From: Closterium sp. NIES-65
Taxonomy: Eukaryota > Streptophyta > Zygnematophyceae > Desmidiales > Closteriaceae
Assembly (NCBI GenBank): GCA_948144175.1
Contig: CANXME010002337.1
Location: forward strand, 1,596,001 to 1,660,000
Direction of reading: 5' to 3'
Length of the DNA: 64,000 bases
Shown: positions 13,759-62,840 of the stretch, in pieces
How positions within the stretch are numbered: the first letter of the stretch is position 1
How the letters are laid out: each line of letters starts with the position of its first letter
Made by a program: the position numbers and the translations under genes
The notes under the pieces: generated by a model
Seen by the model: the letters and a program-made list of their open reading frames with translations, nothing else
What the model was told of the DNA's origin: nothing
Databases searched by the model: none

Positions 13759-16700
13759 ATGGGCGCCTTGCTCCCGAACGAGTCGCCGTCGCCGTCGCCG
13801 CGTCGCCACGAGTCGCAGAAGCGACGTGCGAATCCGTACATCGTCGCAGGCGCGTTGCTGGTCGTCGCATTCCTGGGCGTCCAGTACATCTCGTCGCGAT
13901 CATGCGACACGGAGCTGCAGCTTCAGCGACAGGCTCCAGACGACTCCCCGGGCCGGTTATCCGCGTTACAGCCGTACTACACTAAGGCGCAAAGCGCGCT
14001 CGATTCGGAGCTGTGCCGCGCGGAAGCGGCATACGCGGCGAATAAGGCGCGTCGCGTGGCGTCGTTTAACGGCCTCCTGCAGCCGGCCGTGCTGTCCGTT
14101 GCTGATATGCTGACTAAGGCCATCGCTCCCATGTACCCCTGCCCGCGCGAACAACGGCTTGGCGTGTGGGGAGAAGGCGGAAAGGTGAGAAAGGAGGGGT
14201 GGAAGAGGGGAATGGGAAAGGGTAAGGCACTGGGGACGGTGGAAGAGGAGTGGAAGGAAAATTGGGGTCGAGAGGGCGCAAGAGGGTGCGAGAGGGTGCG
14301 AGAGGGTGCGAGAGGGTGCGAGAGGGTGCGAGAGGGTGCGAGAGGGTGCGAGAGGGTGCGAGAGGGTGCGAGAGGGTGCGAGAGGGTGCGAGAGGGTGCG
14401 AGAGGGTGCGATAGGGTGCGATAGGGTTCGAGAGGGTGCGAGAGGGTTCGAGAGGGTTCGAGAGGGTGCGAGAGTGGGCAAAGGGGAAATGAAGTGGGAG
14501 AGGGATGGGAGGGTACTGGGTGGGGAGGAAGGGAATCAGCCGGCCGTGCTGTCCGTTCCTGATATTCTCACCTATTGCTCGCTCCCATGCCATTGAAGTA
14601 GTGTGTTGAGGCGTCTCAAAACACTACTTCATTCACGTGGCTGTCCGGTTCCTGCTATCTCTCCTCACTATGTCTATTGCTCCCATGCTCCCCTGCCCTC
14701 TATTTCCTCCCTCGCCGCCCACTATCTTTTGTCCCCTTCCCATTCCCAAGTCCCATCCCCCCCTCTTCCCATCCCTTCTTCCGATTCCCCCTTCCTTTCT
14801 GCTTTGTCTTCATGCACCCAATCCTACCTTCCCCACCCTCCACACTCTTGTTCTCCGAGGTGACTTTTGAGTCGACTCAAAAGTCCCCTTCCTTCCGGCA
14901 TTGTCTTCATGCACCCAATCCTACCTTTCCCTCCCTCCACACTCTTGTTCTCCGGCAGTTGGCACCCCACCCCTTTTCCTTCCTCATCCTCCCCACCTCA
15001 CCCCCTTCCCCCCCGCTCCTCCTCCCCACACTCTTGTTCTCCGGCAGTTGGCAACCCACCCCTTTCCCCTTCCTCATTCTCACCCCATCCTCCCCCCCTC
15101 TTCTCCCCCCCGCTCCTCCTCTCTCCCTCTTGTTCTACTGCAGTGGGTCTGCATGCTGCCAACTGCCTTCGAAAACAAACCTGTAGTCTACAGGTGCGTG
15201 CGTGGGGGTGGCGGCGAGGAGGTTTGGGGAGGGAGGGGTGTTGACGTGTCTGTGGGTGGGTGGTGAGTCAAGGAGGGAGAGTCAAGTAGGGAGGGTCGAG
15301 CGTGCCTCTTCCCCTGACCCAATCATGCTCTGCGGCAACTTTTGAGTCGACTCAGTCAAGGAGGGAGGGTCGAGCGTGTGTCTTTCCCCCAACAATCTTG
15401 CTCTGCGCCAATGGGTCTGCATGCTGCCACCTGCCTTTTAAACCAAGCCCTATTGTGTACAGGTGCGTGGGGGTGGGGGAAAAGATGGGTGTTTACGTGT
15501 ATGTGGGTGGGTGAGTGGGTAGGTGGGTGTTAGTTGGAAAAGAGGGGGTCGGGCATGAATTTCTCTCCCGACCGCCTTCCACTCCACCTCACCCCTTCCG
15601 CATCCACTCCTCCCCCTTTTTCCTCCTACACCTCCTCCCATTACGACCAAGCCAGTGTGGGCAGCAAGGAGAGCTACTCGTTCGAGAATGTGCCACATTC
15701 ATCCCCTTCCAACGCCCACAGCAAGGGCGCTGTACCCCTCACCTCACCTTCGACCCATTCATTCCCAAGAGGCGCAGCAACGCATGCTCACTCTCCCCCT
15801 CCTTCTGTTCCACCCCCCTTCCACCCCTTCCCCTTACATACAAGCCAGTGTGGGCAGCAAGGAGAGCTACTCGTTCGAGGAGGACATTGCCAAAGCCACA
15901 GGGGCCATACCGCTCACCTTCGACCCCTTCATTCCCCAAGACGCGCAGCAACGCATGCTCACCCTTCCCCTGCATTTTTTCCCACATACGCCCCTGTCCC
16001 ACCAAACAGTGTGGGCAGCAAGGAGAGCTACTCGTTTGAGGAGGACATCGCCAAAGCCACAGGGGCCGTACCGCTCACCTTCGACCCTTTCATCTCCCAA
16101 GAGGCGCAGCAACGCATGCTCGCCCTGCCCTTCCTCCGTTACTTCCCCGAAGGCCTTTCGGGCAGAGCAAAACTTTCCAAGAACAGAAAGATGTTTCCGA
16201 GCTACACCTTTTCGACTCTGCCCGAGGTGAGAAGAAAGCGGGTGAACTAATCTTTAAACGCATGCTTTATAGAGAGTGTTTTACATTTTTTTTTATTTGT
16301 TTTAACTGATACTCGTTCAAGTGGTGACAGCAAGCCTTTTCAGATGAGTGGTGATCAGAGGCGATAAGGGGTGATAGGTGGTGACAAGGGGTTATAAGGT
16401 GTGATACGGGATGATAAGGGATGATAACGGGTGATATGGGGTGATGAGGGGAGATGAGGGGACATAAGGGGCGATGAGGGGTGAAACGGGGTGATATGGG
16501 GTGACACAGGGTGGTACGTGGTCATGACTGGTGATGAGGGGCCTGGATTGAGCGAACAATAGGTGGGGGGAATGGTGGAATCAAGTTCCCCAACCAAACC
16601 CCATGTTTAAGTCCGCTTCTTTCGTCACCAACCCTTCTTCCCCTTTCCGACTTCCAGCTCATGGCCACTCACAGCAGCACACGTGGATGTGCTCAAGATA

Positions 16701-62100: not shown

Positions 62101-62840
62101 TGAACGGTTCGCCAAGTCGAGCTGATTAAAGTCATGGCTCTGCTCTACAGCAACTCAGTGGTGGAACAGCTACATTACTGCAGCACTGATTCCTAACAGC
62201 TGCTCCTTCTACATTACAACCAAGCAAATTTCATGCTTAAAGGGCTCTTCTTGACAGCTCTCCTGTAAGGAGCTCCTACATCGTCCGTCTAGCCACAACA
62301 CCTGTTACCGGTTCTTCATACCACTAGCCCTCTGCCTAAGTGACTTTTGAGTCGACTCAAAAGTCACCTCCTACATCGTCCGTCTAGCCACAGCACCTGT
62401 GACCTGTTCTTCATACCACAGGTCCTCTGCCTAGCACAGCCGCTCACCTCACCTTGCGTGGCGGCATCGGCGGAGGCCTGCGCGCGCACGGCAACGGCGG
62501 AGGGAGTCGCCGTGGCGGCAACTCGGCGGGGAGCGGAGATGGCTGCCCCGCGGAAAGAGACGGAGGCGGACGAAGAGAGGGCCTGGAGAAGACGGAAGAG
62601 AGACAGATCCAGAATGAGTGAAGGAGAAATATAGATATAACGAGAGGAAGAGGTGTTAAATGATTAAACGGGTGAGTGGTCGTGAGGGAAACAAGCACAT
62701 CGAGTGGGAAAAGAGCTGGCGTGTGTTGGTGTTCTGGGAAATGCCAACGAAGCCTCTACGAAGCTCACATTCTGAGATCTCGACGCAGCGAGCGAGAGGC
62801 TGCTCATCTGCGCTTGCGCAGGCGCTAGGAGCGACGCCAT
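59166..62840 (-). CDS. RPL15: plastid 50S ribosomal protein L15 (uL15c), nucleus-encoded, four exons
   Basis: Component of the chloroplast large ribosomal subunit. Exons 62769-62840, 62453-62582, 59950-60314 and 59166-59363 join in phase to 254 residues. The transit peptide starts [20 protein letters not shown] and ends near [15 protein letters not shown]. The mature protein starts [16 protein letters not shown], then the family block [63 protein letters not shown], joined to [19 protein letters not shown] and [10 protein letters not shown]. The length and motifs are normal for plant L15c. Intron 2 (2.1 kb) holds a palindrome-joined duplication near its 5' end, a 32-base poly-G tract and three copies of a 135-bp repeat. 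Intron 3 holds copies of the exon 3 end. Confidence 0.93.
59696..59860 (-). repeat. two decayed copies related to uL15c exon 3 end
   Basis: AGAGCCTGTGCC(T/C)GGTTC...CAGACAGG occurs at about 59697 and 59801. The second copy continues into minus-strand sequence reading VRDGVLNLS, similar to VEDGILNPS of exon 3. Interpreted as tandem copies of an exon end in intron 3. Confidence 0.6.
60359..60390. repeat. 32-base poly-G run
   Basis: Uninterrupted G run in uL15c intron 2. Its length is likely to be unreliable. Confidence 0.9.
60882..61625. repeat. three copies of a 135-bp dispersed/tandem repeat
   Basis: Copies at about 60882-61015, 61127-61257 and 61492-61625 share CGACAGTAAATCGTCATGCT and GTCAGGGCGTTGGGACTATT. 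Larger diverged units (245 and 365 bp apart) surround them. In uL15c intron 2; no palindrome found between copies. Confidence 0.9.
62273..62434. repeat. 67-bp direct repeats flanking a perfect 28-bp palindrome
   Basis: CTCCTACATCGTCCGTCTAG... occupies 62273-62339 and again 62368-62434, with a handful of differences. Between them, with no spare base, is the perfect palindrome 62340-62367 (GTGAC, TTTTGAGTCGACTCAAAA, GTCAC). It is the cleanest example of the arrangement, just inside uL15c intron 2. Confidence 0.95.

What the first reader, a model, noticed from the sequence alone, without database searches (positions are those of the whole stretch)
14538..62434. Recurrent direct repeat - short palindrome - direct repeat signature in introns
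At about nine places a 22-50-bp palindrome sits exactly between two tandem copies of a 30-70-bp segment: 14538-14688, 14789-14954, 15266-15409, 27312-27453, 33441-33604, 33645-33758, 34674-34756, 46175-46437 and 62273-62434. Most palindromes share TTTTGAG-NNNN-CTCAAAA, with centres TCGA, TTGA, GCGC or GCGT. The shared core argues against chance. Known plant repair of paired nicks on opposite strands makes short tandem duplications, but not with a common palindromic filler. Possible explanations (inference): a mini-element inserted at a long staggered break whose fill-in makes the repeats; hairpin-driven template switching; or a sequence selected for intron folding.
Basis: partly seen in the sequence, partly recalled or inferred. 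Interest (0 to 1): 0.88.

Follow-up and report, generated by a model that had tools for sequence, protein, structure and literature searches.

The report
Tiny palindromic inserts duplicate their targets
A desmid alga (Closterium) genome holds about 30,000 exact copies of the core of a tiny palindromic DNA sequence, and most of the copies examined sit between two copies of a local stretch of tens of bases, as if each had been pasted into a widely staggered break; I know of no described mobile element that behaves this way.

Summary
Nine reported sites and one missed (59683-59843) show repeat - palindrome - repeat with core TTTTGAG-N4-CTCAAAA. The 874-Mb assembly holds 30,327 exact cores against 4 for the reversed pattern. 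Of the 56 exact cores I examined, 49 (29 of 31 isolated ones) have nearby direct repeats, against 226 of 1260 random points; with a tight abutment rule 31 of 56 against 53 of 630. Repeats are locus-specific, 16-136 bp. A few diverged paralogs hold one repeat and no palindrome, clearest where the repeat pair is fully identical, so palindrome plus duplication is derived. Young copies are near-perfect palindromes; mismatch rises with repeat divergence. Centres are self-complementary, arms end independently on each side, half-cores are few, and no nick motif was seen. Best reading: a non-coding palindromic mobile sequence captured at widely staggered breaks whose fill-in makes the repeats. How copies are made, and by what enzyme, is inferred. 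Selection for intron folding is not supported.

The parts
14548..14591 (.). site A left direct repeat
   Evidence: 41 of 44 aligned bases identical, plus gaps
14592..14639 (.). site A palindromic insert; centre now GCGT, arms of the ACGT-type long-arm family (right arm ends N12-CACGTG)
14640..14697 (.). site A right direct repeat
14080..14144 (+). exon copy of the site A target: one repeat, no palindrome (paralogous empty site); exon match 14050-14184
14788..14857 (.). site B left direct repeat
   Evidence: 65 of 70 identical
14858..14884 (.). site B insert AGGTGACTTTTGAGTCGACTCAAAAGT
14885..14954 (.). site B right direct repeat
15280..15338 (.). site C left direct repeat
   Evidence: 50 identical, 6 mismatches, gaps
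15339..15353 (.). site C insert, right arm shortened into the core
15354..15411 (.). site C right direct repeat
27312..27357 (.). site D left direct repeat
   Evidence: 38 identical, 4 mismatches, gaps
27358..27406 (.). site D insert, AATT-centred long-arm type
27407..27448 (.). site D right direct repeat
33443..33506 (.). site E left direct repeat
   Evidence: 58 of 64 identical
33507..33540 (.). site E insert containing AGTTGACTTTTGAGTTGACTCAAAAGTCAAC
33541..33604 (.). site E right direct repeat
33645..33688 (.). site F left direct repeat
   Evidence: 42 of 44 aligned bases identical, one gap
33689..33710 (.). site F insert, GCGC-centred perfect 22-bp palindrome
33711..33758 (.). site F right direct repeat, ending at the edge of a (weak) exon match, 33758
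34674..34705 (.). site G left direct repeat
   Evidence: 30 of 32 identical
34706..34724 (.). site G insert, core plus one base
34725..34756 (.). site G right direct repeat
46172..46465 (.). site H: two tandem ~130-bp units each carrying a decayed palindrome (46206-46223, 46336-46353)
59683..59745 (.). site I left direct repeat (not in the finding)
   Evidence: 51 identical, 8 mismatches, gaps
59746..59783 (.). site I decayed palindromic insert
59784..59843 (.). site I right direct repeat
62273..62338 (.). site J left direct repeat
   Evidence: 60 of 66 identical
62339..62367 (.). site J insert AGTGACTTTTGAGTCGACTCAAAAGTCAC
62368..62433 (.). site J right direct repeat

Best explanation
Each site is one insertion event. 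A short non-coding palindrome from a genome-wide family (core TTTTGAG-N4-CTCAAAA, N4 self-complementary, plus family-specific arms of 0 to about 18 bp per side) was placed between the two ends of a break whose strands were cut some 16-100 bp apart. Filling in the single-stranded ends copied that stretch on both sides, giving repeat - palindrome - repeat. Supported here, in the part of the genome examined: the core family, nearby or abutting repeats, derived state relative to a few paralogous empty sites, near-perfect palindromes at young sites, a common clock for palindrome and repeats. Inferred: that the break is two offset nicks; that both arms are templated by one half-sequence used twice, with two identical 3' tails annealing through the self-complementary N4 (about 0.35 likely within this explanation, against capture of a ready-made duplex or hairpin, a dedicated integrase, or template switching); and that ordinary host end-joining does the sealing.
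For: 30,327 exact cores against 4 for the reversed pattern. 82 of 108 cores with up to 2 mismatches have repeats within 30 bases against 226 of 1260 random points; exact cores 49 of 56, isolated exact cores 29 of 31; within 22 bases and 85% identity 45 of 56 exact and 25 of 53 inexact against 369 of 3120 random; within 10 bases of the palindrome ends 31 of 56 exact against 53 of 630 random. Paralogous copies with one repeat and no palindrome: L016:7665 (repeats 16/16, paralog about 85-90% identical), L009:9300 (repeats 60/60, two paralogs 75-78% identical over the matched stretch), L014:5184, window site A. Core-pair mismatch by repeat divergence class: 1/90, 10/144, 14/99, 15/90; rank correlation 0.46, p 0.001. 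N4 self-complementary in 51 of 56 exact cores. Arms differ in length between sides but, where both are long, mostly carry the same variant. Half-cores: 23 strand-specific occurrences against 155 both-strand counts of full cores, 6 of the 23 with repeats, five of these in one short tandem array. No motif at 72 boundaries. Repair of opposite nicks 46 nt apart gives tandem duplications in mouse cells (PMC5730883, passages read).
Against: Plain capture of a randomly trimmed fragment predicts many half-elements, which are few, so the palindromic centre must be needed for a reason not shown. If random old genomic copies were the donors, young copies should carry about 9% mismatched pairs; they carry 1 in 90, so few intact masters or an arm-matching step is needed. 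No master, enzyme or longer element was found, in 263 kb only, within stretches of 10 kb or the window and with exact half-cores only. Exceptions to matching arms: L018:1828 (8 of 14 arm pairs mismatched, arms out of register by one base) and L006:4002 (7 of 8). Junction microhomology (mean 0.73 against 0.33 in permutation) is about what greedy boundary placement alone would give (my estimate, no call). 7 of 56 exact cores lack a detected repeat, and half of the inexact ones do at the stricter setting. The 56 sites come from four contigs: the first places that the search listed, plus the window. Only 14 sites were compared with paralogs, and one comparison favoured the filled form.
Confidence: 0.7

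Rival explanations
1. (Rival for the copying step; not exclusive of insertion with target duplication.) A dedicated integrase or transposase, encoded elsewhere, recognises the dyad-symmetric core and inserts it by staggered attack on the two strands, as Cas1-type integrases do when a spacer duplicates a whole repeat.
For: The centre, not the ends, is conserved and half-cores are few, as for a homodimer binding site. Staggered nicks with fill-in duplication are the proposed mechanism for casposons and CRISPR spacers (PMC4046053, passages read).
Against: Duplication length is not ruler-like (16-136 bp, median 46, 41 sites), outer ends are not conserved, no target motif, no longer element in 263 kb. 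No integrase gene was searched for.
Confidence: 0.2
2. (Rival for the copying step.) Target-primed reverse transcription of a hairpin RNA by a LINE- or Penelope-like enzyme; variable target duplications are usual for such enzymes (recalled).
For: Variable-length duplications and no coding content in inserts of this size.
Against: No tail in the listed inserts, no nick motif at 72 boundaries, and inserts are not truncated at one end: both arms vary and the centre stays. 5' truncation should give half-elements, which are few.
Confidence: 0.12
3. (Rival for the copying step.) Template switching at a stalled fork or in break repair copies an existing genomic palindrome, and the nascent strand releases itself by folding at the dyad, so the centre is always included.
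For: Would explain the retained centre and independent arm lengths without a special enzyme; duplications follow from re-priming behind the break.
Against: Donors would be mostly decayed copies, yet young inserts are nearly perfect; junction microhomology is not clearly above the expected level.
Confidence: 0.2
4. Selection for intron folding: palindrome and repeats are kept for RNA structure or splicing.
For: Six of the ten window sites appear to be intronic.
Against: Palindrome arms decay at the same rate as repeats, and copies range from intact to degraded.
Confidence: 0.02
5. Assembly or library artefact.
For: No raw reads were available.
Against: An age series of repeat divergence from 0 to 20% (20% was my cut-off), paralogous empty sites, several sequence families, and tens of thousands of copies.
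Confidence: 0.02

Closest known systems
Tandem duplications from repair of paired opposite nicks or protruding ends (PMC5730883, passages read; Vaughn and Bennetzen 2014 seen only as a reference there)
   Same: A local segment of tens of bases is duplicated side by side, without target motif or fixed length.
   Different: Here a common palindromic family sits at the junction in most of the exact-core sites examined.
MITEs and foldback DNA transposons (recalled)
   Same: Short, non-coding, inverted halves, high copy number.
   Different: No conserved outer ends, no fixed target duplication, no internal sequence between the inverted halves.
Cas1-type integration: CRISPR spacers and casposons (PMC4046053, passages read)
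   Same: DNA placed between two copies of a duplicated target through staggered nicks and fill-in.
   Different: Arbitrary targets, variable and mostly longer duplication than the 1-27 nt given for casposons, palindromic insert, eukaryote; a Cas1-like gene was not searched for.
Short palindromic mobile sequences such as yeast mitochondrial GC clusters, Volvox organelle palindromes, Rickettsia palindromic elements (recalled)
   Same: Tens of bases long, palindromic, many copies.
   Different: Organellar or bacterial, and as far as I recall without target duplications of tens of bases.

Membership tests
MITE / DNA transposon derivative | conserved terminal inverted repeats at the outer ends | tested here: not met
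   Conservation is at the centre; outer arms vary from 0 to about 18 bp and differ between sides
MITE / DNA transposon derivative | target duplication of fixed length | tested here: not met
   16-136 bp, median 46, 41 isolated sites
MITE / DNA transposon derivative | a longer partner element with the same ends | tested here: inconclusive
   None in 263 kb beyond local tandem copies, elements up to 9.5 kb only; the genome-wide search did not complete
LINE-mobilised SINE-like element | nick-site motif of the endonuclease | tested here: not met
   72 boundaries, 20 positions; three positions below 0.05, smallest p 0.023, uncorrected
LINE-mobilised SINE-like element | A-rich or simple 3' tail and one-sided truncation | tested here: not met
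   Listed inserts end in arms or core; both sides vary
Paired-nick tandem duplication with filler | duplication of a local stretch of variable length without target motif | tested here: met
Paired-nick tandem duplication with filler | filler random or locally templated | tested here: not met
   Filler is one genome-wide palindrome family
CRISPR array / Cas1 integration | one fixed repeat sequence as target | tested here: not met
   Within the window the repeats of different sites do not match one another; cross-matches between sites run through the palindrome
CRISPR array / Cas1 integration | Cas1-like integrase gene | not tested
   No search for such a gene was made
Known structured RNA | match to an Rfam family | tested here: not met
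   0 matches in the window at gathering thresholds

The most novel reading that the evidence does not exclude
A new class of minimal selfish DNA whose only required feature is a perfect dyad: each new copy is made from one half-sequence used twice, so its arms are symmetrised at birth (even the variable 12-base stretch between CTCAAAA and CACGTG is mirrored where both arms reach it), and it spreads by being the preferred filler at widely staggered breaks, without conserved ends, payload or fixed target duplication.
Probability: 0.35. Interest if true: 0.93.

Novelty: categorically new. Interest (0 to 1): 0.86.

Why it matters
If the reading is right, a repair outcome (staggered-break duplication) and a tiny palindrome together form a self-spreading sequence with about 30,000 exact cores in one genome of a plant relative. 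It would show a mobile DNA that needs no conserved ends and perhaps no enzyme of its own, explain one source of short tandem duplications in introns, and give a dated natural record of staggered breaks and their lengths.

Tried and rejected
Scans of viral contigs and of prokaryotic genomes used narrower patterns than the core and gave 0; they say nothing about other algae. Junction microhomology looked enriched (p 0.003), but the permutation ignores greedy boundary placement, so I do not use it. Search for longer elements with the core at their inner ends: 17 candidate pairs, none convincing beyond local tandem copies.

Empty-site comparisons: 16 comparisons of 14 sites, picked by me from the 121 rows (which covered 82 sites; most rows were the site's own sequence or arrays) plus window site A. 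The empty form scored higher in 14, lower in 1 (L009:4157, which lies beside a second insert) and equal in 1 (window site G, whose alignment did not cover the repeat). A filled query also pays a gap cost, so the scores alone are weak; I lean on the alignments that read straight through. Those of L012:6292, L017:765, L018:4728 (whose target itself has a core-like match), L020:4750, L009:6806 and L010:3108 have many gaps and I do not lean on them.

Literature: eight searches (listings seen) and passages of the Closterium genome paper PMC10407611 showed no report of these palindromes; one search lists 0 occurrences of 'palindrom' in that paper.
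Full report
WHAT THE WINDOW IS. A Copia-type polyprotein in the window matches proteins of Closterium sp. NIES-53, NIES-54, NIES-65 and Yama58-4, up to 98% identity among the 120 listed hits, and a methyltransferase exon matches Closterium sp. Naga37s-1 at 87%. Closterium is a zygnematophyte green alga. 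The window is G000:C2039:1596001-1660000 of an 874,075,685-base assembly in 2400 contigs.

THE OBSERVATION. Alignment of left and right flanks confirms repeat - palindrome - repeat at the nine places given, with a tenth at 59683-59843. The 46-kb site is two tandem ~130-bp units with decayed palindromes, and the 15.3-kb site has a shortened right arm. The repeats are locus-specific within the window; matches between sites run through the palindrome. With up to 3 mismatches the core occurs 11 times against 2.6 expected.

GENOME SCALE. TTTTGAGN4CTCAAAA occurs exactly 30,327 times, against 4 for the pattern read backwards; this counts members of tandem arrays singly. I fetched 199 kb: 169 kb covering the places listed on contigs C6, C9 and C10, and 30 kb beside the window, making 263 kb with the window and holding 56 exact cores, 5 of them in the window. 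Among 58 complex palindromes there, 50 have the core (up to 3 mismatches); 28 of these strictly abut repeats, and 0 of the 8 others do. With a caller that allows up to 30 bases between core and repeat, 82 of 108 cores (up to 2 mismatches) have repeats against 226 of 1260 random points; exact cores 49 of 56, isolated exact cores 29 of 31. Stricter settings: within 22 bases and 85% identity, exact 45 of 56, inexact 25 of 53, random 369 of 3120 (293 kb); within 10 bases of the palindrome ends, 31 of 56 exact against 53 of 630 random. The random rate is high because the sequence is rich in tandem repeats. Some cores form tandem arrays of palindrome plus short repeat (L009:7991-8156, L012:2440-2669, L012:7186-7466, L020:6135-6320), and some of their 'repeats' are array units. 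Thirty kilobases more from C6 and C9 and thirty from three other contigs held no exact core and two inexact ones, neither with a detected repeat. Exact sites outside C6, C9, C10 and C2039 were not examined.

INSERTION, NOT LOSS. At several sites a diverged paralogous unit holds one repeat copy and no palindrome. The cleanest is L016:7665: repeats 16/16, and a paralog, about 85-90% identical, that reads straight through the junction. At L009:9300 the repeats are 60/60 while two paralogs (L009:9761-10000, L010:1-260) are only 75-78% identical over the matched stretch. L014:5184 (repeats 31/34) and window site A (exon copy 14080-14144) agree, and L015:3956 and L010:8972 agree with small gaps. Where the repeat pair is younger than the paralog split, the duplication plus palindrome is derived. 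This rests on paralogs, not on alleles, and on 14 compared sites; the comparisons that did not help or went the other way are under Tried and rejected.

CLOCK. Across 47 isolated sites with repeats at least 80% identical, palindrome core pairs are mismatched at 9.5% (40/423) and repeats at 8.8% (215/2444), rank correlation 0.46. By repeat divergence class (0-4, 4-8, 8-13, 13-21%), core mismatches are 1/90, 10/144, 14/99, 15/90 and arm mismatches 0/23, 3/33, 10/50, 11/30. Palindrome and repeats therefore appear to arise together, the palindrome nearly perfect, and both decay.

ANATOMY. N4 is TCGA 25, ACGT 13, GCGC 11, AATT 2 of 56, the other five one change away from a palindromic four-mer. Outside the core, arms of 0 to about 18 bp differ between sides (for example 18 and 0 at L005:3845, 4 and 14 at L009:102), but where both are long they mostly carry the same variant; exceptions are L018:1828 and L006:4002. 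The ACGT type has a longer form: CACGTG lies exactly 12 bases out from the core in 7 sites (six with centre ACGT, one GCGT), against single occurrences at offsets 13, 22, 27 and 39 (110 cores, 323 kb). The 12 bases vary between sites; where both arms reach that far (site A, L012:6292, L016:1068, L021:4604) they are mirrored with few differences. Half-cores are few: 23 strand-specific occurrences against 155 both-strand counts of full cores in 293 kb, and 6 of the 23 have repeats, five of these in one 20-bp tandem array. I did not compare the rest with a shuffle. No longer element with exact half-cores at its inner ends was found in 263 kb, within stretches of 10 kb or the window. Seventy-two duplication boundaries from 36 sites show no motif that survives correction. 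Duplication length at 41 isolated sites is 16-136 bp, median 46.

HOW IT MAY WORK. Supported: a sequence-specific palindrome arrives together with duplication of an arbitrary target stretch. Inferred: the stretch is the overlap of two offset nicks, filled in on both sides. Repair of opposite nicks 46 nt apart gives tandem duplications in mouse embryonic stem cells, and the authors cite similar results in Arabidopsis and human cells and natural insertions in rice (PMC5730883, passages). The retained centre, self-complementary N4, independent arm ends and near-perfect young palindromes fit a step in which both 3' ends of the break copy the same half-sequence and the two tails anneal through N4. 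They also fit a dyad-recognising integrase or a few intact masters. Capture of randomly trimmed fragments fits less well because half-elements are few. I do not use the apparent junction microhomology.

CONTEXT. Protein-to-DNA matches of two methyltransferase genes place six of the ten window sites in introns: 14.59 and 14.86 kb in one intron, 15.34 kb in the next; in the second gene 34.71 kb in one intron (which also holds extra copies of an exon piece) and 33.51 and 33.69 kb in the next. The small middle exon that separates these introns is a weak match (E 0.04 to 0.6). The right repeat at 33.69 kb ends at the edge of that match. No Rfam family matches the window.

NOVELTY. Eight literature searches (listings seen) and passages of the Closterium genome paper gave no report of such palindromes. 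Each known family I tested fails at least one defining feature (membership table); several comparisons rest on recalled knowledge. Most subscription papers are not in the library, so a prior description cannot be excluded.

Noticed in passing
window 21784-22787, 25537-25998, 26414-26969, 32027-32567, 16655-17083: Tandem repeats of 119-275-bp units, some including exon-like sequence; matches to one methyltransferase exon piece lie at 32166, 32441 and 32765, so introns hold extra exon copies.
   Followed up: partly
window 39591-45821 (+) and 48924-55056 (-): Two Copia-type retrotransposons; Pfam gag, integrase and reverse transcriptase matches were run for the first, the second was read from its translation and protein hits.
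   Followed up: no
window 7010-9035 (-): Tc5/pogo-like DDE transposase reading frames (7854-9035 matches Pfam DDE_1 and HTH_Tnp_Tc5; the overlapping frame 7010-8104 looks like its continuation).
   Followed up: no
L009:7973-8174, L012:2407-2702, L012:7186-7466, L020:6105-6328: Tandem arrays in which palindrome plus short repeat is the unit (periods 37, 53, 24, 42), perhaps later expansion of an insertion.
   Followed up: partly
L005:3845, L012:6292, L016:1068, L016:1116, L021:4604, L030:2282, window 14604: CACGTG exactly 12 bases outside the core in the ACGT-centred family, with a variable 12-base stretch between.
   Followed up: partly
L016:3973-4016: A 44-bp palindrome without the TTTTGAG core and without abutting repeats.
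   Followed up: no
L012:8345-8475: 20-bp tandem array containing the half-core GACTTTTGAGGCAC.
   Followed up: no
window 36966-37001 and 38736-38771: Two perfect 36-bp AT runs 1.8 kb apart.
   Followed up: no
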